The translations under genes and the position numbers were made by a program. The notes below the pieces were generated by a model. It made no database searches. It was not told the origin of the DNA and was given only the letters and a program-made list of their open reading frames with translations. DNA of 64,000 bases from assembly GCA_000771265.1 (NCBI GenBank), contig JDUB01000007.1:62001-126000 (forward strand), written 5' to 3'. Source of the DNA: Bifidobacterium thermophilum DSM 20210. GTDB lineage: Bacteria > Actinomycetota > Actinomycetes > Actinomycetales > Bifidobacteriaceae. How positions within the stretch are numbered: position 1 is the first letter of the stretch; each line of letters begins with the position of its first letter. This document shows, piece after piece, positions 38,780 through 57,376 of the stretch.

Positions 38780-39331
38780 ATGAGTCATGATTTCAGTCAG
38801 CGGGGTCGTCGCATTGGTGGCGGCCTCGCTGTCGTATATTACGCCCGTGGATCTGGCCACCTGTACGGCACGTCGCTTCCGGTCGGTGGCAAGAACACCC
38901 ATGCCGTGCTCACCGGACATCGCGGCATGGTCAACGCGCTCATGTTCACGCGCATCGACGAACTCAACAAAGGCGACGACTTCTACATCAAGGTCATGGG
39001 GGAGACGCTCGCCTACCAAGTGGACTCGATCACCGTGATCCTGCCGACCGAAGGCGACCGGTATCTGCGCATCAGACCCGGCGAGGACAGGGTCACGCTC
39101 ATGACCTGCACGCCGTACGGTGTCAACACGCATCGGTTGCTGGTTTCCGGGCATCGAGTGCGGATGCCGGTCCCGGCGCCATACCCGCAGGATGCGCGCG
39201 GAGATGCCCGCGTTCTGGCGGTAATCATCGGATTCGTGGCGCTTGCCGTGACCTTGGCCGGCTGGACGGTGCTGCACCGCCGGTTCCGCTGGATGCTCAT
39301 GCGGCATGCCGCCGACCGCCATGGCTTCTAA
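38780..39331 (+). pseudogene. Class C sortase remnant lacking its N-terminus
   Basis: The frame encodes the second half of a pilin-polymerising class C sortase: HLYGTSLPVGGKNTHAVLTGHRG (catalytic His), LMTCTPYGVNTHRLLVSGHRV (catalytic Cys and Arg) and a C-terminal membrane helix (ARVLAVIIGFVALAVTLAGW). The expected N-terminal membrane anchor, lid and first ~100 residues are missing; the first ~25 codons (DFSQRGRRIGGG and so on) do not resemble a sortase. No pilin gene with an LPXTG motif is adjacent. It is most likely a decayed remnant, although the catalytic triad survives. Confidence 0.75.
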
Positions 39332-40943: not shown

Positions 40944-41009
40944 ATGGCACAATGGCAGGTAGTGTGCAATTGCGCGTACCAGGCGAAAGGAAGGCCGCAA
41001 GGTGACTGA
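40944..41009 (+). CDS. Possible 21-codon leader ORF overlapping the FHA gene start
   Basis: ATG at 40944 with AGGGAG 3 bp upstream and GATAAT at 40929-40934 as a possible -10 box. It encodes MAQWQVVCNCAYQAKGRPQG plus Asp, and its stop (41007-41009) overlaps the GTG start of the FHA gene at 41002. It could couple translation or be chance. Confidence 0.25.
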   Translation: MAQWQVVCNCAYQAKGRPQGD

Positions 41010-43041
41010 GCAGCGATCCGGGCAGCAGTGGATCATCAAGGTCAATGGCGCCGAACAGACGGATGTAAAGCCGGGGGAGAGCATTGAAATCGGTCGTAAA
41101 CCGTTGCGCCCGCTTGCCGATGACGGCAATCGAAGGCTTGAAGTCCCCGACAGCGAACGCTCCATGTCCAAACGCCATGCCTTGTTCACTGTGCATGAGG
41201 ATGGTTCCGCGGACGTGCGTGATCTCAACTCCACGAACGGTTCGTATATGATCCGCGAGAACGGCGAACTGACGCGGCTGCAGCCCGGTGTGGAATGCGA
41301 GCTGAAATATTCGCCGATTCGCCTGCAATTCGGTGATATTCCCGTCGATTTCATCCGTGTGGACGCGCAGGAGCGGGTCGAGCCCAAGGTGACGGACCTG
41401 TTCTCCTATGCCTCTGGTGACGCGAAGCAGGAACCTGATCCGTCTGATATGTCCGTGGACGACATCCTCAATCTGCGCGCAGGTGAGCCGACTGCGATGT
41501 TTAGCTCGCAGAATGTCGCCGACCGCCTGCGTGAGTTGCGTGACGCCTCGCTGCATGTGCCGAAGCTCGCCGGCACTGAGCCGGAGCAGCCCGTGGATGG
41601 GAATGCGTCGGATGATCAGCTTCAGGCCCAGCCGGGGCAAGAAACAGTGCAAGAGCAAGCGTCCCCCGCCGGGCATACGGTTTCCGGCGCGGATGCCGGT
41701 CAGCGCGATTCCGCTTCTCGCCAGTCCGCCTCCGGTGCGATGCCTGTGCAGCGCGAGACTTCGCCGGCGCGTGCGTTCGGCGCGCAGCCCATCCTGCCTG
41801 ATCCCGTGGTCACTGTCACTCAGCAACGTCAGTTCGCCGAACAGCATCCGCTCGAAGAGCTGCCGTTGACCGTGCAGCCGGGAGGTATGAACGAGCCTGG
41901 CCCGCGTGATTTGTTCGCCGATGCCGAGAAGCGCAGCAAGCAGGAAGATCAAGCCAAGCAGCAGCCGTCTGAGTCGGATGCCGGTTCGTCGGCATCGGGT
42001 CAGGACGGAGCTGAGGCTGCCGGCGGCCAGCATCAGGCCGAGAACACGACCGCCCAGGGAGATTCCGCGGACAACATGCCCGCCGACATCGCCAATGGTG
42101 GCTCTGTTGCACCCGAGCAGAGCGAAGCCCCCGCCTCGAACCCGTCAAAGCCGGATGTGGTGTCAGTGCATGATTTGTTCAGCGCACAGCGAATTCATGA
42201 AGTACAGGCGGCGCGTGCCGCGAGCGACCGTGATGCACAGCGCCAGCCGGTCAATGCACAACAACCGACCGCTGAGGGGCAGTCGGCCAATCAATCAGCC
42301 GATGAATCTTTGGCTGATCAGTCCCCGGCCCATGAATCCCCGGCATCTGCCGTACAAGCCCCTGCAGAGCAGATTGCGCAAGCCGGTTCTGGTCCCGTGG
42401 CGGCGCAACAGCCTGCTCAGGCAGCGCAGCAGCCTACTCAACAGGCGGCGCGTGTGACCTTCACACCGATGGACGCTTCCGCCGCGCAGGCATCTCCAGC
42501 GGACCAGTATGCTCCAGCCGCGCAAGGCGCACAAGCTGTCCAGCCTGCGCAAGCTGCCCAGCCCGCGCAGGCCGTTCCGGTCATGCAGGCTACGCAACCC
42601 GTTCAATCCGCGCCGCAGCAGGCATCGCAGACCGTTGAATCGCAGGATTACAGCCGTTTCGCTCGTCCCACCGCGGGGCAGCCCGCAGCCCAGCAGCCGG
42701 GTATGCAACAGCCGCAGGTATCTGCCGATCCGCAACAGAACTTCAAGCCGGTATTCGAGCCAGGTTCGGTGTTCGAACGTGTCTCCCGCGGGGATTTTGA
42801 CAAGCAGGAGCAGATGGTGGAGGTCGGCGGATACACCTCGCAGCAGGCGAAGACCACCAGTGATTACACCGTCCAGTTCCAGATCGCGCGGCACGCCCAG
42901 CTGCTGCCGTTCCTTGCGATGAACCCCTCGCTGTACGATGACCTGTACACGTGGCTTGCGGCGCAGGGCAACGCCGATGTCGACGCGGCGCTTTCGCGCA
43001 ATCAGGGCTATCAGGAATACCGCAAAGCGGTAGGGAAGTGA
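41002..43041 (+). CDS. FHA-domain protein with long Gln/Ala/Pro linker and C-terminal variant-Leu-rich motif
   Basis: 679 aa. An FHA domain occupies ~5-115: IEIGRKPLRPL (Arg of the phosphothreonine pocket), SMSKRHALF (Ser-x-x-His) and DLNSTNGSYM (Asn) are all kept, so it should bind phosphothreonine peptides. Residues ~180-590 are low-complexity Ala/Gln/Pro/Ser. The C-terminal ~60 residues (ARHAQLLPFLAMNPSLYDDLYTWLAAQG) resemble variant leucine-rich repeats of actinobacteria. The GTG start has AAGGAAGG upstream. It ends 7 bp before the helicase-like gene, so the two probably work together. Role unknown; a Ser/Thr-kinase-linked adaptor is plausible. Confidence 0.82.
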   Translation: MTEQRSGQQWIIKVNGAEQTDVKPGESIEIGRKPLRPLADDGNRRLEVPDSERSMSKRHALFTVHEDGSADVRDLNSTNGSYMIRENGELTRLQPGVECELKYSPIRLQFGDIPVDFIRVDAQERVEPKVTDLFSYASGDAKQEPDPSDMSVDDILNLRAGEPTAMFSSQNVADRLRELRDASLHVPKLAGTEPEQPVDGNASDDQLQAQPGQETVQEQASPAGHTVSGADAGQRDSASRQSASGAMPVQRETSPARAFGAQPILPDPVVTVTQQRQFAEQHPLEELPLTVQPGGMNEPGPRDLFADAEKRSKQEDQAKQQPSESDAGSSASGQDGAEAAGGQHQAENTTAQGDSADNMPADIANGGSVAPEQSEAPASNPSKPDVVSVHDLFSAQRIHEVQAARAASDRDAQRQPVNAQQPTAEGQSANQSADESLADQSPAHESPASAVQAPAEQIAQAGSGPVAAQQPAQAAQQPTQQAARVTFTPMDASAAQASPADQYAPAAQGAQAVQPAQAAQPAQAVPVMQATQPVQSAPQQASQTVESQDYSRFARPTAGQPAAQQPGMQQPQVSADPQQNFKPVFEPGSVFERVSRGDFDKQEQMVEVGGYTSQQAKTTSDYTVQFQIARHAQLLPFLAMNPSLYDDLYTWLAAQGNADVDAALSRNQGYQEYRKAVGK

Positions 43042-43048
43042 GTCGAAG

Positions 43049-46000
43049 GTGAGTGAATCCATCCAGTCTGAGGAAGCACTCAGGCGTATGCGTCATTGGC
43101 GTGACGACTATCGCAACGCCTTGGCGCCGTCTCCGCTTGAGGATATCAGCCAGCTGTCGGCGCAGCTTGATTTGACGCACGCGCATCCTTCAGGTATCGC
43201 CCAGCTGTTCGCCAGTGGCAAGGCGCCGCTTGATTCCCTGTTCCGTGACGCCGGCATGCTCCGGGCTGCAGGGCGTCGTCTGGAACGCGTCTACGAGGAC
43301 CAGACCACGAAAAGCCGGCTCAGCGGAGTCGCCGAACTGTCCATGGTCGTCGGCGTGGCAACATGGTCGGGCAAATCCGTCCCGGTGCTGCTGTATCCGG
43401 TCGATGTGACGCGCAAGCCGGGCGGTGGCGAAACCGACGCAACCATCAGCTTCACGGGTCGCGGCCGGCTCAACCCCTCGTTCGTGACCGCCCTGCATGA
43501 TCAAGGCGTCAACCTCGACGAAGACGAACTGTTCGACGGCTCCAACTACCCCAACGGCACCCCGGAGACTTCCGCAGTGTTCGCCGCGATAGAACGGCAG
43601 GCCCGCAAGGCGTTCACCGATTTCAACATCGATCGGTACATCATCGTCGGCTGCTTCATGGATCCGAGCGCGCAGATTCTGCTGGAAAGCCAGCGGATCA
43701 TCGACGCCTTGCGCCATGGGGCCAGCGGCAACACCATTCTTGACGCGCTTGCCGGCTTGCCTCAGGCGCTTCACGACATCGAAACCGATAAAATCCCCGA
43801 ATTCAGCCCGTTCGACGGCGATCCGCATGCCGAATTCGAAATCGGCGATGTAGACAACACCGTGCGGTATGCGGCCAATCTCGCCGCAGCCGGACACTCC
43901 ATCATCGTGGATAGCGAGGTCGGCAGCGGCACTGCCGCCCAAGCCGCGGCAATCGCCTCGCGGTGCGTAATGAACGGCAAATCCGTGCTCTACGTCCCAT
44001 GCGTGGCCGAGCAGAAGCGCCGCTTCACCCGGCTTATGGGCGCCAACAGCATGGGCGATATGGTTCTTGACATCGCCGACGAGCAGGGCAACACCGCCAT
44101 CGACAAGCAGCTGATCGCCGCGGTGGGGTACCGTACGGGCAACGCGGCAAGCCGTTTCGACCAGCTGTCCGACGAGCTGGTGGGCGTGCGCTCGCGGTTG
44201 ACCCGGTATCTGGGCGACCTGCACGGCGTCAACGAGCGTTGGGGTGTCTCGGCATACCAGACCATCCAGAACCTCGCGAGCATCGCGACATTGCCGACCC
44301 ACCCGGCGACCCACGTGCGGCTGAGTCAATCCGCTGCTCGCACCCTCAACGGGCATATGGACGAGTGGGCACACAAGCTCACCACCGCGGGCGAACTCGG
44401 CGAATTCACGATCGGCCCGGACGATACCGCTTGGTATCAGGCGTCCTTGACGACCGAAGATCAGGCTGTCGACGCGTATCAGCGGGTCGTCGACGTCATG
44501 CAGAAACTGCTGCCCGCCACCCGCGAGCAAGTGGCGACCACCGTGCAGACCTGCGGATTCCCTGTGCCTACGACAGCGCAGGAGTGGGGACGTCAGGTGA
44601 CGGTGTTGAAGAATCTGCGCCGCGTGCTTGACGTGTTCCAACCGGAGATCTTCGAACGCGATATCGACGCGATGATTGAGGCGAGCAAATCCAAGCAGCA
44701 ACGCAAGGCCGAAGGCTCCGATCTGGGCTTCTGGGAACGTCGCCGCCTCGTCAAGGAAGCCAAGAGCCTGCTGCGTGTCGGCGCCCAGGTTGAGAACTTG
44801 CATGACGCCCTTGTCGTGGTCGCCAAGCAATCCGAGCAATGGCATCTGTTCGTGCCTCACGGCGGCTGGCCGGTGCTCCCGCCGAAGCTGGACACGATTC
44901 TGGAAACCCAGGACGCTCTGATGCGCGACATCACCTCCCTCGATGCGGTGCTGGCTACCACGCCGAAGGGCGGCAACCTGGAATCGCTTGATTTCAACAC
45001 GCTTGAGGAACGGCTCAAGGCGCTGTACAACGACCACATGGCATTGGACACCCTGCCCGGCCGGTGCCGTCTCGAACAGGACTTCCGCTCCGTCGGGTTG
45101 GATGAGCTGGTCGACGATTTGCGGGCGCGCCACGTTCCTGTGGAAGCGGTTGAAGGCGAGCTTCAGCTGTCGTGGTGGACGACCGTGTTCGAGGACATCG
45201 TCAAGGAATCCGCCATCATCTCGAATCAGGACGGGTCCGCGCTGCAGACAGCCGCCGACCGGTTCGCACAGGTCGATACCGAGCATGTGCGCTCGATCGG
45301 CCCGATGATTCACCAGGAATCCATCCGCAAGCTGTGCGATCTGCTGTTCTCGAAAACGCAGGAGGCAAACCAGCTGCACACTGTGCTCGCGGGCGGGCAG
45401 AACACCCCGTTCAACCGTGTGCTGCACGACCACCCGCAGATTATGGCGCTCGCCAAGCCGGTGCTTATGGGTACGCCGTCCACACTCGCGGCGCTGACCG
45501 ATCCCGCCCCGCTCGCCGATGTGGTGATTATCGACGCCGCAGCCCATCTGCCGGCGATCGAACTGCTCACCATCGTCTGCCGTGCCCGTCAGGTGGTGCT
45601 CATCGCGCATTGTGCAACAGTAACTTCCCCGAGCGTGAAAGCCTTGATCGACATCCTGCCGCATGTTTCGGTGCGATCCCGCCTGACGCGGCGTTCCCCG
45701 CAGCTGTCGGTATTCCTGCGCAAGGAAGGCTACGGCGAGATTCGACATGCCGCGCCGACGGAAGGCATGCAGGGCACGGTTCGACTGCACCGGATCGAAG
45801 GCACGGGCGTGCCGGTCATCTCCTCCGGACTCGTAGAAAGCAGTCAGCAGGAGATTTCCACGGTCACTAAGCTGATTTGCGACCGTGCCGGGTCATTCAC
45901 CGTGGTGCCCGTTGACTACATGCTCACCGTCGTGACGCTGACCGAAGCGTTCCGTTCCCGTCTGGGCGCAGAACTCAAGTCCTTGGCGACCAAGGACAAG

Positions 46001-46663
46001 GCGATGGGGCGGTTCCTCAGGCATGTCCGGCTGATCGGCATCGACGAAGTCGCCGGGGCGCAAACCACCGACGCCATCGTTTCGATGTGCTATGCGAAAA
46101 CCACGCACGGCAGGCTGTTGCAGCAGTTCGGCCCGCTTGAAGGCAACGGCGGCAAGGGCATGCTGCTTGACGCGCTCGCGCTCGCCGACCGCAATCTTGA
46201 TATCGTCTCCTCCTTCGGTCCTGAGGATCTGGATGATGAGCGTCTTCACCAGCCTGGCCCGCAGCTGCTCAAGCGATTGTTGCAGTGGGCGGAAACGCTG
46301 GATTCCGGTGCGTTGCGTCCGCAGCCTGCGTCGGCCGGCGACAATGTCCTGTTCAACGATTTGGCGGACCGTATTCGCGCCCGCGGGCTGGACGTTGCCG
46401 TGGATTACGGCTTCTCCGATGGCATGCGCATTCCGCTGGTCATCGGTGTCAAAGGCAAGCCATACGCGCTGGCCGTACTCACCGATGACGCCCAGTTCAT
46501 GGGCATCCAGTCCACGCGTACCCGCCACCGCCTGCTTCCGCAGGAGTTGGCTCAGCTTGGGTGGTCGGTGATGACGGTATGGAGCGTCGCCGCATTCGTC
46601 AACCCCGATAAGGAGGTTGACCGCATGGTCGCCCGTATCGGCACGCTGTACCGGGAGGCGTGA
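43049..46663 (+). CDS. DUF4011/SF1-helicase-like protein with degenerate ATPase motifs
   Basis: 1204 aa. The order recalls large DUF4011-helicase-nuclease proteins: an N-terminal DUF4011-like region (~10-170, VPVLLYPVDVTRKPG and LNPSFVTALHDQG), a split RecA-like helicase core, and a C-terminal MTES_1575-like REase fold (~1095-1200, ending LLPQELAQLGWSVMTVWS). The Walker A position reads VDSEVGSGTAAQ (~288-299), without GKT/S. Walker B reads VVIIDAAAHL (Asp829), without the catalytic Glu. The nuclease region lacks a clear Asp-Glu-Lys set. It is likely a pseudo-enzyme or scaffold. GTG start at 43049, 7 bp after the FHA gene. Domain assignment is by pattern and needs a profile search. Confidence 0.7.
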   Translation: MSESIQSEEALRRMRHWRDDYRNALAPSPLEDISQLSAQLDLTHAHPSGIAQLFASGKAPLDSLFRDAGMLRAAGRRLERVYEDQTTKSRLSGVAELSMVVGVATWSGKSVPVLLYPVDVTRKPGGGETDATISFTGRGRLNPSFVTALHDQGVNLDEDELFDGSNYPNGTPETSAVFAAIERQARKAFTDFNIDRYIIVGCFMDPSAQILLESQRIIDALRHGASGNTILDALAGLPQALHDIETDKIPEFSPFDGDPHAEFEIGDVDNTVRYAANLAAAGHSIIVDSEVGSGTAAQAAAIASRCVMNGKSVLYVPCVAEQKRRFTRLMGANSMGDMVLDIADEQGNTAIDKQLIAAVGYRTGNAASRFDQLSDELVGVRSRLTRYLGDLHGVNERWGVSAYQTIQNLASIATLPTHPATHVRLSQSAARTLNGHMDEWAHKLTTAGELGEFTIGPDDTAWYQASLTTEDQAVDAYQRVVDVMQKLLPATREQVATTVQTCGFPVPTTAQEWGRQVTVLKNLRRVLDVFQPEIFERDIDAMIEASKSKQQRKAEGSDLGFWERRRLVKEAKSLLRVGAQVENLHDALVVVAKQSEQWHLFVPHGGWPVLPPKLDTILETQDALMRDITSLDAVLATTPKGGNLESLDFNTLEERLKALYNDHMALDTLPGRCRLEQDFRSVGLDELVDDLRARHVPVEAVEGELQLSWWTTVFEDIVKESAIISNQDGSALQTAADRFAQVDTEHVRSIGPMIHQESIRKLCDLLFSKTQEANQLHTVLAGGQNTPFNRVLHDHPQIMALAKPVLMGTPSTLAALTDPAPLADVVIIDAAAHLPAIELLTIVCRARQVVLIAHCATVTSPSVKALIDILPHVSVRSRLTRRSPQLSVFLRKEGYGEIRHAAPTEGMQGTVRLHRIEGTGVPVISSGLVESSQQEISTVTKLICDRAGSFTVVPVDYMLTVVTLTEAFRSRLGAELKSLATKDKAMGRFLRHVRLIGIDEVAGAQTTDAIVSMCYAKTTHGRLLQQFGPLEGNGGKGMLLDALALADRNLDIVSSFGPEDLDDERLHQPGPQLLKRLLQWAETLDSGALRPQPASAGDNVLFNDLADRIRARGLDVAVDYGFSDGMRIPLVIGVKGKPYALAVLTDDAQFMGIQSTRTRHRLLPQELAQLGWSVMTVWSVAAFVNPDKEVDRMVARIGTLYREA

Positions 46664-46867
46664 ATGCCTTCGTATGATGCGCACCGTCACACGCCTCGCC
46701 GTCATCATCGTGTCACGATGAAGGGCACTGAACGCTTCGATGCTGATGGCGTCAAGCTGGAGCCTTCCGACGTGCAGACGCGCGAACAGCGCGATGCTGA
46801 CGACGATCAGCGTATTCTCGGCGAATTGCCGCCGCACTGGGCCGTGTTCAACGAGCGCGGTCGGTAA
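46664..46867 (+). CDS. Small charged protein in the FHA operon
   Basis: 67 aa starting at the base after the helicase-like stop, with GGGAGG upstream. The sequence has a His/Arg-rich start (YDAHRHTPRRHHR), an acidic middle (REQRDADDDQRILGELPPHW) and no membrane segment. I do not recognise a family. Tight spacing indicates translational coupling to the helicase-like gene. Confidence 0.65.
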   Translation: MPSYDAHRHTPRRHHRVTMKGTERFDADGVKLEPSDVQTREQRDADDDQRILGELPPHWAVFNERGR

Positions 46868-51965: not shown

Positions 51966-52070
51966 GTTTGCCCAGCCAGATCCGACGTGACACGCGGCGT
52001 GGACCGGGCGGTAAGATGGCTTTGGTCGTGTGTTCCGACACGACATCTGCTACGAGGCAGGGGACAACAT

Positions 52071-53042
52071 ATGGTCACTTCGATGGGAACCTCACAGGCG
52101 CGGGACGTGTTGCATGCCGTGGCCGACGCGTTGAACGCGGTGCTTGCATGCCCGCGCGAGACGGTGGAGACAACGGTTCTGACCTTCGCTGCCGGCGGTC
52201 ACGTGCTGCTCGAAGATGTTCCGGGAGTCGGTAAAACCACGTTGGCGAGAGCTCTGGCTACGGCAATCGGCGGGACAGTACGGCGGATCCAGTTCACTCC
52301 GGATTTGCTGCCGGGCGATTTGCTCGGCATGAACGTGTATTCGCGCGCCACGGAGTCCTTTGCGTTCCATCCTGGCCCGATTTTCGCCAATATCGTGATC
52401 GCCGACGAAATCAACCGTGCCGATCCGAAAGTGCAGTCCGCACTGTTGGAAGCGATGGGCGAGGGGCAGGTGTCTGTGGACGGGCAGACGCATCATCTGG
52501 AGCAGCCGTTCATCGTTGTCGCCACGCAGAACCCGATTGAGCTTGAAGGAACCTATCCGCTGCCTGAGGCACAACTCGACCGGTTCATGATCCGCATGGG
52601 CTTCGGGTATCCGGTTGCCGGGACGGAGGAGCGGATGGTGATGTCGGATCATGCGTCCAGACCGCTTGAAGGATTGCATCGTGTCGCGGAACTCGACCAG
52701 ATGCAGGCGATACGCGATACCTGCGCCGTGGTGAAGATTTCGCAGCCGGTGGCCCATTATCTGGTGTCATTGACGGCCGCTACCCGCACGATGGAGGGCG
52801 TATCCTACGGCGTGTCGCCTCGCGGCAGTCTGCAGCTCGCCGCTCTGTCCCGTGCGAAGGCGCTGTATGAGGGCAGAGGTTTCGTGCTTCCTGACGATGT
52901 GCGTTGGGCGGCGCCGTTCGCGTTGTCGCACCGGTTGGTGCTGGAGAACGCCGGATACGGTACCGCACCGACCGGTCTGGCGCGTCAGCTGGTGGAATCG
53001 CTGATTGAGCGCACCCCGGTCCCGCGGTCGTCTGACAGGTGA
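52071..53042 (+). CDS. MoxR-family AAA+ ATPase
   Basis: 323 aa. Walker A is in LLEDVPGVGKTTLARALA; the MoxR sequence RIQFTPDLLPGDLLGMNVY, Walker B VIADEINRADPKVQSALLEAMGEGQV and sensor region VVATQNPIELEGTYPLPEAQLDRFMIR are complete. MoxR ATPases act as chaperones for partner proteins, usually encoded next to DUF58 and transglutaminase proteins, exactly as here. The ATG at 52071 follows AGGGGACA. Its stop overlaps the next gene's GTG (GTGA). Confidence 0.95.
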   Translation: MVTSMGTSQARDVLHAVADALNAVLACPRETVETTVLTFAAGGHVLLEDVPGVGKTTLARALATAIGGTVRRIQFTPDLLPGDLLGMNVYSRATESFAFHPGPIFANIVIADEINRADPKVQSALLEAMGEGQVSVDGQTHHLEQPFIVVATQNPIELEGTYPLPEAQLDRFMIRMGFGYPVAGTEERMVMSDHASRPLEGLHRVAELDQMQAIRDTCAVVKISQPVAHYLVSLTAATRTMEGVSYGVSPRGSLQLAALSRAKALYEGRGFVLPDDVRWAAPFALSHRLVLENAGYGTAPTGLARQLVESLIERTPVPRSSDR

Positions 53043-56000
53043 ATCATATGACCGACGAATCGTCAGCTGGCGGCAAGCCCGCCCGCCACGCATCCAGCCA
53101 AGCTCGCTTGCGCAGGGCAGGGGTGCCGTGGAGAATGCGCCGCGGGTGCGTCCGCCCGGGTGCCGCGGGGCTGGTGGCCGGTCTGGCGATTGTGGCGTTG
53201 TGGCTTGTCGCGTTGACCTTCGACGCCCGTGTGCTGGTAGCCGCAGCCATCGCGTGGACAGCGGTGTGGCTGATGTCCGGGTGCTGGGGTGTTGTGCAAT
53301 CGGTTGCAGTACGGCGTATTCAGTCTGGACGGCCGGTCGGGACGAATACAGCCGCGGACACGGCCGCGGGAACGGAACGGATTCCCCGCTGGCGTCGGCT
53401 CTGCCATGCGGTGATGCTGCCGCATGATATCCGCACCGTCGGCACGTACATCCGGCTCAATCCGGAGGAGTATGTCGGCAGTGTCCCCAATCAGCGTGGA
53501 TGGTATCGGCGTGTCGGCATGGTATTGTCGTGGCGCGAACCGCTCGGTCTGTTTGTTGTGCGTACGGTCATCCCCGATGATGCGGAACTGGTGATTCTTC
53601 CTGAACCGGGGCCCGTCAACGTGACTGCCGGCGAACCTGCGTCAGGTGCGCGTGGCGGGGGACGGGCGACCTTCGGATTCGCGGGTTTGCGTGAATATGA
53701 GCCCGGCGACCCCGTACGCAGCATCGCGTGGAAACGTAGCGCCAGCGCGGGCCGTCTCATGGTCAAACGCGCCCCGCGCAGCATGGTGCATGCGGTCATG
53801 CTCGTATGCGATATGGCCTCCTGTACTACCGACGCCCAGGTTGATGCCGTCGCCTACGCTGCGATGAGCCGGTATGCCGGTCTGTGTGCCGGCTTGGAAC
53901 GGCACGGCGGCAAGCTGATTGTCACTGACGGACAGGCAGTCGCCACATCCTCAGGCCAGACCATGCGGCTTATCGCCTCGCTACAGGCCGGAGGGGACGC
54001 CGACCATATGGCTGCAACCGTGTGCAATGCCGCTTCTGCGCAACATATGCCGGTCAACGTGGTCGTCATCACGGCAAGCACATCAAGCACGGCAAGCGGC
54101 GTAAATACGGCGAACGGCACCAACGCCACAACAGCCCAAGGAATCCGGCTCGTCGCAAGTCTGCGTGCCGCCGGGCAGCCGAATGTGCAGACGGTGTCGG
54201 TCCAGGGCGACCACGCCTCGTACCGGTTGCGCTCGTATGAGATGGATGACAGTGAGGATGATGCCGTCGAGGGCAGTGAACCCCTGAGCGGTCGGGCATC
54301 CGCGCGCAGACACATCCGTCGGGTCGGTGCGTGGCTGCCCGCCGCCCACGAATCCGGACCGAACCACGACCACACGCCTGCCGGGCAATCCGGCCGACGC
54401 CGGTGGGTCGCAGCACAAGTTGCAGGACTGCTTGTGCGAACCACAATCGTGGCGCTCACCATGGAACTGAGCGTGCAGTGGGCGCTGATGCTGGTCCAAG
54501 GGAAGGGGTTGTGGTGGCCGGTATTCGCGCGGATAGGCGTCGCGGCGCTTGCCATCACCTCGCAGATTCCGACACCGCGGCGGTTCAAGCACAGGCGGTT
54601 GGTGGCAGCGATTCGGGGCATCGCATTCGTCCTGACAGCCCTTGTGACAGGGATTGTCATTGCAGGGCTACGGTTGCGTGAAACCCTCGGATTCCTGCCG
54701 TGGCATCCCGTCTACACGCAAGTGTCCGCAGGCGGGGAGCAGACCGTCGTGCACGTCCCGTTCACCCAGGTCTGGGGACGATTCGCGACAACGGTTGCAT
54801 CGGGTTTCAAGCAGTTGTATGCGCAAGTACCGCCGCTGAATATGGGAGCGGCGTCGGATGCCGCCGTCATCATCGCTGTCGTCGGGGTGATGCTGGTTGT
54901 CCGGCTGCTTGCCGGCATTCCCGCTGCAATCCCGTGGATGGGCATCCTCCCCGTTGTCGTGGGTGCGGCGGCGAATGTGTCGATGCTGCAGGAAGTGCCG
55001 TGGGTGGGGGTGCTGCTACTGGCGGCATCGCTCGCCTTGGCGTGGTGGTCGGTCCGTCCGCACGCCGCATCTCTGGTCATGCCGTGTGTCGCATCGGTGG
55101 TGACGATGGCCTTGGTGACGTCTTGCACGTCGGCGGGGCTTGCGTTCGCGCGGTCCGTCCCGCTCACCTTCGACGCGGGCAACGGCATGTTCAGTTCCAC
55201 GACCATCAACCCGATGATCGATCTCAAACGCTCCCTGACGACGGGCTCCTCGGCGACTGCCTTGACCTACCAGTCCAACAGGGCACGATACCTGCGTATG
55301 GCCACGCTGGATGATTTCGACGGCGATACGTGGAATTTCGATGCCACATTGTCGGCGAGTGCGAATCTGTATCGCCGCAGCTCCTCCACTGCATTCGTCA
55401 ACTTGCAATCCGATGTGGACAAAGCCGCCTCCAAGCTTGCCGCGTCCTCAGGTGGATACTCGTCCGCAGCTCAGCCGTTGGCCACATATCTGACGTATGA
55501 CAACGGGTCGCTTGATTCCGCGAACGTCGCGGATAGTTGGCTCGATATCAAAATCGCTGAAACCGATGTCACCATCGACAAGCTCAGCACGCGTCTGCTG
55601 CCGGTCGGCGGCCTGCTGCTCGACTATTCCGGAGTCAGCGGCGACTGGACCGACAACTCCTCGGGCGGCATCACGTCGCGGAACGCCACCACGACACGGG
55701 GGCAATCCTATACGACGACGGGCATCTATATTGATCCAATCAGCTCGTCCCTAGGCTTCCAACAAATCGACACCATTGAGAAAGCCGTGTTGACCTTGCG
55801 CGACACCGGGCATCTGACTGTGCCGGATGCCGCCACGGCGAATGCGGAACGCGCACGATGGGTGTCCTCGGGGGCCGCGCAACGCGCCGGTGATCTGCTG
55901 CTCATTCCCGTCACGAGCAGCGACGGCATCCTGACCGTCGCAAATTCCGACACTTTCGACGGAGCGCTCGCCTACGAATGGTCGAAAAACGGGTACAGCG

Positions 56001-57376
56001 GCGATGCGAATTCCAACGACCCGGGAAGTGCCAGTATGTACACGCTGAGCACGTCGTTCGCCAATGCCGTCGGTTTCAATCCGAACAAAGACAGTGCCGT
56101 GCTCGTGCATGATTCGGGCGGCGGAACCTGGATGCTTGCGCTTCCCGCCACCGTGGGTGCAGCTGATTTCTCGGACGCCGATGCTGTCACGTCACTGTTC
56201 GCCAAGGCGGGGATGACCGTGTCGTCAGTGATATCGGTAGCGTTGGAAAGCGGGCTGGTCGACGGATCTGACCTGTTCGCCCGCATCGATGCTCTCGACA
56301 AAGCTGTGCTCGCCCGCTACCGGTCACTCCCGGCGAAGCTGCCGTCCGGCGTCAAGGCGGTGATCTCCCAAGCGAAGGCCGATGGCATACCATCCGAGGG
56401 ATCCACCTTCAACGAGCAGGAACAGGCGTTGCAATATCTGGTCAGGTATTTCTCCTCGAACGGCTTCACCTATTCCCTGGACGTGCCGGGCGATGAAACC
56501 GGCGACGACAGCAATATCGCGATGGTCGGCAGCTTCCTCAAGCGCAAAAGCGGCTACTGTGCGCATTATGCGAGCGCATTCGCCATCCTCGGGCGAGCGC
56601 TCGGGGTGCCCACACGCATGGTGCTCGGCTACAGCACGAGCGGGGTGGTGGATGAGAACGGGTCGTACAGCGTCAGCGCGAAACAGCTGCACGCTTGGGA
56701 TGAAGCCTACCTGTCGGGGGTTGGCTGGGTCCCGTTCGATGTGACCCCGGCTGCATCCGAGGAATCGTCCGATGCCGGCCAAAGCCCCTCTTCGGCTGCG
56801 TCGTCGTCAAGCCCGTCGGAGTCGTCCTCGCCTTCAGCTTCACAGTCCGCTTCGCCGTCGGCTTCCGCCTCGGCGTCGTCATCGGGTTCCATTGGCGGGC
56901 CCAGCTCCCGGACGCAGGGTCGCGATGACGCTTCTCAGACGGGCTTACCGGTCCGCCAGTGGATGGTGTTCCTGGTGGCTGTCGCGGGGTTGGGGGCGCT
57001 GTGCTGCGTACCGATGGGCATACGTTCGCGCAGGAGACGTCGCCGGTTATGGGCGTTCGATCGTGCGGCGTGTGGGGGAGCGGACGACGACACGCCGGTC
57101 CGGTCCGCGTGGATTGGCGCGTGGCGCGAGCTTCAGGACACCGCGTGGGATTGTGGGGCGCGATGGCCTGTTACGGCCACGGATCGGGATATCGCCGATG
57201 TCGTAGGGGCCGCGCTCGCCTGCGAGGCGGCCGGAAAGGTCGCCGGTCGGGCAGCAGCGTGCGTATTTGGGCACGGTGATGTTCCAGCGCCGTCGCTCAA
57301 GGATGCCGCCGATGTGCGCGCAGCTGTGGAAGGCCGCCGCCGGTTCATGCCCATGTCGCTGTTCCGTCGGCGTTGA
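53039..57376 (+). CDS. DUF58-transglutaminase (TgpA-like) fusion membrane protein
   Basis: 1445 aa. Residues 1-420: two membrane helices then a DUF58 domain (FAGLREYEPGDPVRSIAWKR, the family hallmark). Residues ~450-700: about seven helices as in TgpA. Residues ~700-1260: a large extracellular region with a transglutaminase-like fold carrying Cys1174 (SGYCAHYASAFA), His1218 (LHAWDEAYL) and Asp1234 (WVPFDVTP). A Ser/Pro/Ala-rich stretch, one more helix (~1305) and a cytosolic tail follow. DUF58 and TgpA proteins are usually separate genes after moxR; here one frame covers both. It probably acts on the envelope with MoxR. Target unknown. Confidence 0.85.
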   Translation: MNHMTDESSAGGKPARHASSQARLRRAGVPWRMRRGCVRPGAAGLVAGLAIVALWLVALTFDARVLVAAAIAWTAVWLMSGCWGVVQSVAVRRIQSGRPVGTNTAADTAAGTERIPRWRRLCHAVMLPHDIRTVGTYIRLNPEEYVGSVPNQRGWYRRVGMVLSWREPLGLFVVRTVIPDDAELVILPEPGPVNVTAGEPASGARGGGRATFGFAGLREYEPGDPVRSIAWKRSASAGRLMVKRAPRSMVHAVMLVCDMASCTTDAQVDAVAYAAMSRYAGLCAGLERHGGKLIVTDGQAVATSSGQTMRLIASLQAGGDADHMAATVCNAASAQHMPVNVVVITASTSSTASGVNTANGTNATTAQGIRLVASLRAAGQPNVQTVSVQGDHASYRLRSYEMDDSEDDAVEGSEPLSGRASARRHIRRVGAWLPAAHESGPNHDHTPAGQSGRRRWVAAQVAGLLVRTTIVALTMELSVQWALMLVQGKGLWWPVFARIGVAALAITSQIPTPRRFKHRRLVAAIRGIAFVLTALVTGIVIAGLRLRETLGFLPWHPVYTQVSAGGEQTVVHVPFTQVWGRFATTVASGFKQLYAQVPPLNMGAASDAAVIIAVVGVMLVVRLLAGIPAAIPWMGILPVVVGAAANVSMLQEVPWVGVLLLAASLALAWWSVRPHAASLVMPCVASVVTMALVTSCTSAGLAFARSVPLTFDAGNGMFSSTTINPMIDLKRSLTTGSSATALTYQSNRARYLRMATLDDFDGDTWNFDATLSASANLYRRSSSTAFVNLQSDVDKAASKLAASSGGYSSAAQPLATYLTYDNGSLDSANVADSWLDIKIAETDVTIDKLSTRLLPVGGLLLDYSGVSGDWTDNSSGGITSRNATTTRGQSYTTTGIYIDPISSSLGFQQIDTIEKAVLTLRDTGHLTVPDAATANAERARWVSSGAAQRAGDLLLIPVTSSDGILTVANSDTFDGALAYEWSKNGYSGDANSNDPGSASMYTLSTSFANAVGFNPNKDSAVLVHDSGGGTWMLALPATVGAADFSDADAVTSLFAKAGMTVSSVISVALESGLVDGSDLFARIDALDKAVLARYRSLPAKLPSGVKAVISQAKADGIPSEGSTFNEQEQALQYLVRYFSSNGFTYSLDVPGDETGDDSNIAMVGSFLKRKSGYCAHYASAFAILGRALGVPTRMVLGYSTSGVVDENGSYSVSAKQLHAWDEAYLSGVGWVPFDVTPAASEESSDAGQSPSSAASSSSPSESSSPSASQSASPSASASASSSGSIGGPSSRTQGRDDASQTGLPVRQWMVFLVAVAGLGALCCVPMGIRSRRRRRRLWAFDRAACGGADDDTPVRSAWIGAWRELQDTAWDCGARWPVTATDRDIADVVGAALACEAAGKVAGRAAACVFGHGDVPAPSLKDAADVRAAVEGRRRFMPMSLFRRR

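What the first reader, a model, noticed from the sequence alone, without database searches (positions are those of the whole stretch)
40944..46867. FHA adaptor + dead-looking DUF4011/SF1 helicase-nuclease + small protein operon
The FHA protein keeps its phosphothreonine-binding residues. The 1204-aa partner keeps the DUF4011-helicase-nuclease architecture, but Walker A (GSGTAAQ, no GKT), Walker B (DAAAH, no Glu) and the REase motif look inactive. A 67-aa charged protein follows with no gap. DUF4011 helicases with MTES_1575 nucleases are often linked to defence or nucleic-acid repair. A chromosomally embedded, ATPase-dead version controlled by an FHA protein suggests a phospho-regulated scaffold rather than an enzyme. 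I know of no description of it.
Basis: partly seen in the sequence, partly recalled or inferred. Interest (0 to 1): 0.62.

Follow-up and report, generated by a model that had tools for sequence, protein, structure and literature searches.

The report
Conserved dead helicase-nuclease scaffold module
A very large protein that looks like a DNA-unwinding and DNA-cutting enzyme has lost every part needed for either job, yet nearly every bacterium of one large order keeps it under strong selection beside a small partner protein, and the bifidobacteria family adds a phosphate-reading partner, so it probably works as a switchable scaffold.

Summary
Window 41002-46867 is a three-gene operon: an FHA/LRV protein, a 1204-aa SF1B (Upf1-like) helicase-nuclease with both active sites destroyed, and a 67-aa protein. 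Three points change the picture. (1) It is not a Bifidobacterium oddity. Orthologues occur in 193 of 195 good Actinomycetales genomes (71 of 71 genera), in most sampled families at one conserved locus (FmdB, SAF, MscL, 5-FCL). The Walker A lysine is missing in every sampled member of 18 of 20 families. Syntenic orthologues from one family (f4) and from Intrasporangiaceae/Dermacoccaceae keep intact motifs, so an active enzyme was inherited and then inactivated. (2) The 67-aa protein carries an acidic 'DDxRIL-ELPPHW' motif that is encoded downstream in most relatives and fused to the helicase's C-terminus in at least ten: a gene-fusion link. (3) The FHA partner is specific to Bifidobacteriaceae; its pThr-pocket residues are invariant in 38 of 38. 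dN/dS for the helicase is 0.03-0.07. I read it as a domesticated, catalytically dead relative of anti-phage ProA/PDC-S37/Hhe helicase-nucleases, now a scaffold coupled to Ser/Thr phosphorylation in bifidobacteria. Scaffold function and partner binding are inferred; death of both active sites is strongly supported by sequence.

The parts
41002..43041 (+). FHA-linker-LRV_2 adaptor protein (679 aa, GTG start)
   Evidence: Pfam FHA and LRV_2; orthologue directly upstream of the helicase in all Bifidobacteriaceae loci except genera g69/g74; full-length hits confined to Bifidobacteriaceae
41089..41286 (+). FHA domain, residues 30-95; pThr-pocket residues G31 R32 S56 K57 H59 T78 N79 G80
   Evidence: Pfam; 38 of 38 invariant
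41389..41502 (+). conserved linker stretch (DLFSYAS...VDDILNLRAGEPT), candidate docking motif; further DLF motifs near residues 303 and 391
   Evidence: conservation; repeated motif
42841..43002 (+). LRV_2 domain, residues 614-667
   Evidence: Pfam
43049..46663 (+). pseudo helicase-nuclease (1204 aa), DUF4011-type N-terminus + SF1B core with a long helical insertion + MTES_1575 REase fold
43916..43942 (+). degenerate motif I / Walker A, EVGSGTAAQ (PPGTGKSQT in intact orthologues)
45533..45547 (+). degenerate motif II / Walker B, DAAAH (DEASQ in intact orthologues)
46358..46639 (+). MTES_1575 REase-fold domain with Asp>Pro and Glu>Leu substitutions and a new fixed signature IPLVxG...TDDxxFM
   Evidence: Pfam; column counts
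46664..46867 (+). 67-aa small partner protein: basic patch, FDADGVKLEPSD, acidic DDDQRILGELPPHW tail
   Evidence: conserved in all Bifidobacteriaceae loci with the FHA; PPHW motif fused to the helicase C-terminus in at least ten other loci
46829..46840 (+). PPHW motif (PPHF in some relatives)

Best explanation
The operon encodes a pseudoenzyme module. The 1204-aa protein descends from an active DUF4011-type SF1B helicase fused to an MTES_1575 nuclease, of the ProA/PDC-S37/Hhe anti-phage superfamily, which settled in one chromosomal locus of Actinomycetales ancestors. Most descendant families then lost ATP binding and hydrolysis and, in Bifidobacteriaceae and their neighbours, nuclease catalysis as well, while the fold stayed under strong purifying selection. 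It now most likely acts as a non-catalytic platform: the SF1B/REase surfaces hold nucleic acid or a nucleic-acid enzyme, and the long helical insertion between motifs I and II holds proteins. The small PPHW protein is its constant partner, probably docking through the acidic-PPHW tail. In Bifidobacteriaceae the FHA-LRV protein was added as a phosphothreonine-reading subunit that recruits a Ser/Thr-kinase substrate to, or releases it from, the platform. Shown: loss of catalytic residues, conservation, synteny, fusion link, invariant FHA pocket. Inferred: physical complex, nucleic-acid binding, phospho-control.
For: Walker A Lys absent in all Bifidobacteriaceae and in every sampled member of 18 of 20 Actinomycetales families; Walker B Glu replaced in 38 of 38 main-clade Bifidobacteriaceae (A/G/S) and REase Asp>Pro in 38 of 38, against E in 17 of 17 and D/E in 17 of 17 intact relatives. 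Conservation of motif I falls from the 91st to the 23rd percentile, and the top conserved windows include several in the helical insertion. dN/dS 0.027-0.072. Present in 128 of 130 good Bifidobacteriaceae and 193 of 195 good Actinomycetales genomes, including 0.8-0.9 Mb genomes that keep all three genes. Shared FmdB/SAF/MscL/5-FCL locus with intact orthologues. PPHW fusion. FHA pocket invariant and five Ser/Thr kinases in the same genome. High-confidence SF1B model. Precedent: D. radiodurans PriA is a pseudohelicase that still binds DNA and DnaB (PMC4504706).
Against: No direct evidence of any interaction, nucleic-acid binding or phenotype. The FHA partner is absent outside Bifidobacteriaceae, so phospho-regulation cannot be the ancestral function. 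AlphaFold of a naturally fused relative (L107) gives the PPHW tail only moderate confidence (pLDDT about 70-76 after a disordered linker), and contacts could not be inspected. The ligand of the FHA domain is unknown; no fully conserved Thr stood out in the 67-aa protein. Essentiality data for B. breve exist but the gene tables could not be consulted.
Confidence: 0.6

Rival explanations
1. It is the structural subunit of a larger active complex: the dead helicase-nuclease pairs with an active helicase or nuclease in trans, as with one-sided active subunits of AddAB/RecBCD-type machines, and contributes substrate binding or processivity.
For: Foldseek also aligns weakly to AddAB and RecBCD chains (low TM-score); the REase fold is kept and carries a new fixed signature; dead subunits in repair complexes are known from general knowledge.
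Against: No conserved adjacent gene encodes an active helicase or nuclease; the own genome holds no second relative of this protein.
Confidence: 0.18
2. It is a defence pseudoenzyme: a guard or decoy derived from an anti-phage helicase-nuclease that senses phage DNA or proteins and signals through FHA and kinases.
For: Intact orthologues score about 780-820 bits to ProA and PDC-S37 anti-phage profiles; the window protein scores 183-192 bits.
Against: Order-wide vertical inheritance at a fixed housekeeping locus, kept in 0.8 Mb genomes, very low dN/dS, essentially absent from phages and plasmids; defence genes are usually patchy and mobile.
Confidence: 0.1
3. The protein is still an enzyme that uses non-canonical residues for ATP or metal binding.
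For: Walker B Asp is kept (37 of 38) and some families keep a GTGxTQ-like P-loop or motif VI arginine.
Against: The P-loop is among the least conserved parts in Bifidobacteriaceae (23rd percentile), and Lys, Glu, motif VI Arg and REase Asp/Glu are replaced together.
Confidence: 0.05
4. The FHA gene is only co-transcribed and acts elsewhere, for example in cell-wall kinase signalling; only the dead helicase and PPHW protein form a unit.
For: PPHW and helicase are linked across the order, the FHA only in Bifidobacteriaceae; FHA-like and LRV-like proteins also occur elsewhere in these genomes.
Against: The FHA gene is adjacent in every Bifidobacteriaceae locus with a normal helicase, including genomes reduced to 0.8 Mb; 7-bp gap in the window.
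Confidence: 0.2

Closest known systems
Anti-phage ProA (NCBIfam NF058533), PADLOC candidate PDC-S37 and Hhe (NF042953): DUF4011 SF1 helicase-nucleases
   Same: Architecture and homology: DUF4011-like N-terminus, SF1 helicase core, MTES_1575-type nuclease; intact syntenic orthologues score about 800 bits to ProA and PDC-S37
   Different: Catalytic residues lost, score far below the ProA cut-off (183 against 1500), vertical order-wide inheritance at a core locus, PPHW and FHA partners
UPF1-like SF1B helicases (UPF1, Sen1/senataxin, IGHMBP2, DNA2)
   Same: Predicted fold of the helicase core
   Different: Dead motifs I, II, III, VI; very long helical insertion between motifs I and II; REase domain at the C-terminus
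Pseudohelicases such as Deinococcus radiodurans PriA (PMC4504706) and yeast Utp25 (PMC9539457)
   Same: Helicase descendants that lost ATPase motifs and are kept; D. radiodurans PriA retains DNA and DnaB binding
   Different: Different helicase family; here helicase and nuclease sites are both lost, across many families, with dedicated small and FHA partners
Actinobacterial FHA adaptors (OdhI/GarA, FhaA, FhaB)
   Same: FHA fold with intact pThr-binding residues
   Different: Joined to a C-terminal LRV_2 domain by a disordered linker and encoded with the pseudohelicase; only weak NCBIfam matches

Membership tests
ProA / PDC-S37 / Hhe anti-phage helicase-nuclease | Profile score above the curated cut-off | tested here: not met
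   183 bits against a cut-off of 1500 for ProA, 58 against 2000 for Hhe; PADLOC gives no cut-off, 192 bits
ProA / PDC-S37 / Hhe anti-phage helicase-nuclease | Intact Walker A, Walker B and REase catalytic residues | tested here: not met
ProA / PDC-S37 / Hhe anti-phage helicase-nuclease | Protection against phage | not testable with these tools
   needs phage assays
SF1B (UPF1-like) helicase fold | Two RecA-like domains of UPF1 type | tested here: met
   AlphaFold pLDDT 90, Foldseek hits to SETX, UPF1, Sen1, DNA2; profile hits to SMUBP-2, NAM7, DNA2
SF1B (UPF1-like) helicase fold | Active helicase motifs GKS/T, DE, GDxxQ, motif VI Arg | tested here: not met
   EVGSGTAAQ, DAAAH, AHCATV, LALADR
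MTES_1575 REase domain | Pfam PF18741 score above gathering cut-off | tested here: met
   43.8 bits against 38.2
MTES_1575 REase domain | Catalytic Asp and Glu | tested here: not met
   Asp>Pro in 38 of 38; Glu>Leu in the window
FHA domain | Pfam FHA above cut-off with GR, SxxH and NG pocket residues | tested here: met
   27.8 bits against 20.7; invariant in 38 of 38
FHA domain | Binds phosphothreonine | not testable with these tools
   needs peptide-binding assay
DUF4011 | Pfam PF13195 above cut-off | tested here: inconclusive
   no match in the window protein but met by intact orthologues over the aligned region

The most novel reading that the evidence does not exclude
An anti-phage-type helicase-nuclease was captured in the core genome of early Actinomycetales, stripped of both activities, and became an order-wide, perhaps essential, scaffold with its own PPHW peptide partner; in Bifidobacteriaceae it was placed under Ser/Thr-phosphorylation control by an FHA protein, making a new kind of pseudoenzyme signalling complex.
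Probability: 0.35. Interest if true: 0.8.

Novelty: new variant of a known kind. Interest (0 to 1): 0.64.

Why it matters
A large gene found in nearly every Actinomycetales genome sampled (annotated simply as 'DNA helicase' in the Actinomyces oris record) appears to have lost helicase activity in 18 of 20 families sampled, and nuclease activity too in Bifidobacteriaceae and their neighbours, yet it is strongly conserved even in 0.8 Mb genomes. It offers a clear example of a defence-type enzyme turned into a housekeeping pseudoenzyme, with intact orthologues available as natural active controls, and a possible Ser/Thr-phosphorylation output in bifidobacteria, where few such outputs are known to me.

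Tried and rejected
Bifidobacterium-only decay: rejected, since the same losses occur across 18 families. Pseudogene: rejected, dN/dS 0.03-0.07 and no stop codon inside any listed match. Mobile defence gene: not supported. 67-aa ORF as chance: rejected. Conserved FHA ligand Thr in the 67-aa protein: GTE and TPR sites are replaced in several species, not supported. LRV_2 neighbourhood elsewhere in the genome (beside a gene resembling rsmI) gave no clue. Two class-level searches with an intact query failed technically. A mixed alignment was too divergent for the named-genome scan, so the scan used an intact-motif alignment, which is biased towards intact proteins. B. breve essential-gene paper: the gene tables are in supplements, which could not be read; the main text names neither helicase nor FHA. 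The docking test on the fused relative L107 was inconclusive. phmmer of the FHA protein against the PDB gave no hit. Literature searches for DUF4011, MTES_1575 and pseudohelicase found no description of this module.
Full report
1. What is there. The window holds a tight three-gene operon on the + strand. The FHA protein (41002-43041, 679 aa) carries an FHA domain (residues 30-95) and a C-terminal LRV_2 domain (614-667) joined by a long, poorly conserved, low-complexity linker. After 7 bases comes a 1204-aa protein (43049-46663), and at the very next base after its stop codon a 67-aa protein (46664-46867).

2. The large protein is a helicase-nuclease by fold. Pfam finds only the MTES_1575 REase domain, but NCBIfam and PADLOC show sub-threshold, highly significant similarity to the anti-phage proteins ProA, Hhe and PDC-S37. 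Syntenic orthologues with intact motifs score for DUF4011, AAA_11, AAA_12 and MTES_1575, and about 780-820 bits to ProA and PDC-S37. An AlphaFold model from 74 orthologues has mean pLDDT 90 and pTM 0.78; its best PDB matches are senataxin, Aquarius, UPF1, Sen1, IGHMBP2 and DNA2, and a profile search finds SMUBP-2, NAM7/UPF1 and DNA2. About 530 mostly helical residues separate motifs I and II.

3. Both active sites are dead, and not only here. In the window and in 37 further Bifidobacteriaceae loci (three very divergent loci set apart), motif I has no Lys, the motif II Glu is A/G/S in 38 of 38, the motif III GDxxQ and the motif VI Arg are gone, and the REase Asp is Pro in 38 of 38. The matching residues in 17 intact relatives are E in 17 of 17 and D/E in 17 of 17. 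Across Actinomycetales the Walker A Lys is missing in every sampled member of 18 of 20 families (for one of them, f12, the motif I stretch is cut off by the contig end and the call rests on motif II and the REase); one family (f4) is intact and one (f17) is mixed. Some families stop part-way, with GTGATQ, GTGQTQ or GTGHTQ P-loops and a motif VI Arg kept. The tree, built without motif columns, puts intact proteins near the base and the sampled rows of 16 families in one well-supported clade without the Lys (two more families, represented only by truncated contigs, were left out of the tree); separate losses occur in f25, f38 and one f17 row.

4. It is a core gene. Matches are present in 128 of 130 good Bifidobacteriaceae genomes and 193 of 195 good Actinomycetales genomes, 71 of 71 genera, but only patchily in the rest of the class. 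These counts are of matches to the protein and can include related paralogues in some genomes. Genomes of 0.8-0.9 Mb still keep it. Most sampled families place it beside FmdB, a SAF-domain gene, MscL and 5-FCL, including loci with intact motifs from Intrasporangiaceae and Dermacoccaceae (Knoellia, Pedococcus, Nostocoides, Luteipulveratus, Flexivirga). More distant intact relatives (Dactylosporangium, Nonomuraea and others) lack this neighbourhood and the PPHW motif. In Actinomyces oris the order is 'DNA helicase', 104-aa 'hypothetical protein', mscL, SAF, 5-FCL, glp; its helicase motifs are degenerate and the 104-aa protein ends in DVPPHWG. Relatives on phages and plasmids are distant: one phage record, and one plasmid-labelled A. 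oris record covering at least 80%.

5. It is under selection. dN/dS is 0.027 against a 97%-identical orthologue and about 0.07 against 89% and 72% ones (Nei-Gojobori, dS near saturation for the last). Motif I drops from the 91st conservation percentile in intact relatives to the 23rd in Bifidobacteriaceae, while several of the best conserved windows lie in the helical insertion (WGVSAYQTIQNL, LSWWTTVFEDIV, LGFWERRRLVKE, LDVFQPEIFERD) and a new REase signature (IPLVxG...TDDxxFM) is fixed.

6. The small protein. All 38 Bifidobacteriaceae loci with the FHA have a short downstream ORF with a tail ending in PPHW, or PPHF in the reduced genomes and two others. A matching motif lies on a small downstream ORF in many other families and at the C-terminus of the helicase itself in L033, L042, L044, L051, L106, L107, L118, L121, L123 and L126. 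Recurrent fusion implies that the two work together. The motif is short, so homology of the rest of the small proteins is less certain. A model of a naturally fused relative gives the tail helix pLDDT of about 70-76 after a disordered linker, suggestive at most.

7. The FHA partner. It is directly upstream in all Bifidobacteriaceae loci examined except three of genera g69/g74, and no orthologue was found beside the gene elsewhere. Pocket residues are invariant, the linker holds a conserved SVDDILxLRAGEPT stretch and repeated DLF motifs in many species, and the genome encodes five Ser/Thr kinases. It is a lineage-specific addition to an older helicase-PPHW unit.

8. Mechanism. I infer a non-catalytic platform that binds nucleic acid or a nucleic-acid enzyme, with the PPHW protein as constant partner and the FHA protein as phospho-reader in Bifidobacteriaceae. 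D. radiodurans PriA shows that a pseudohelicase can keep DNA and partner binding (PMC4504706). The defence reading fits the ancestry but not the distribution. No paper found describes the module.

Noticed in passing
window 51987-57376: MoxR-type AAA ATPase followed by a single 1445-aa ORF that joins DUF58, TgpA_N and a transglutaminase core; related genes sit directly beside the pseudohelicase orthologue in L036.
   Followed up: partly
L106, L107, L108 (genera g69 and g74 of the same family): Very divergent pseudohelicases without the FHA partner; in L106 and L107 the RPPHW tail is fused to the helicase.
   Followed up: partly
L091, L092, L094 (another order of the class): Same synteny and PPHW ORF, but a P-loop with Lys replaced by Arg (GTGRTQT): a separate partial inactivation.
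   Followed up: partly
window 41002-43041, linker near residues 133, 303 and 391: Repeated DLF motifs in the disordered linker of the FHA protein, shared by many Bifidobacteriaceae orthologues; possible docking sites.
   Followed up: no
window 38780-39328: Sortase-domain ORF just upstream of the rplJ-like and rplL-like ORFs (Pfam Sortase).
   Followed up: no
NZ_CP116225.1 375040-390720 (L218): A 415-kb record labelled as a plasmid of Actinomyces oris carries this core locus (mscL, SAF, 5-FCL, glp), so it may be a chromosomal fragment or a chromid.
   Followed up: no
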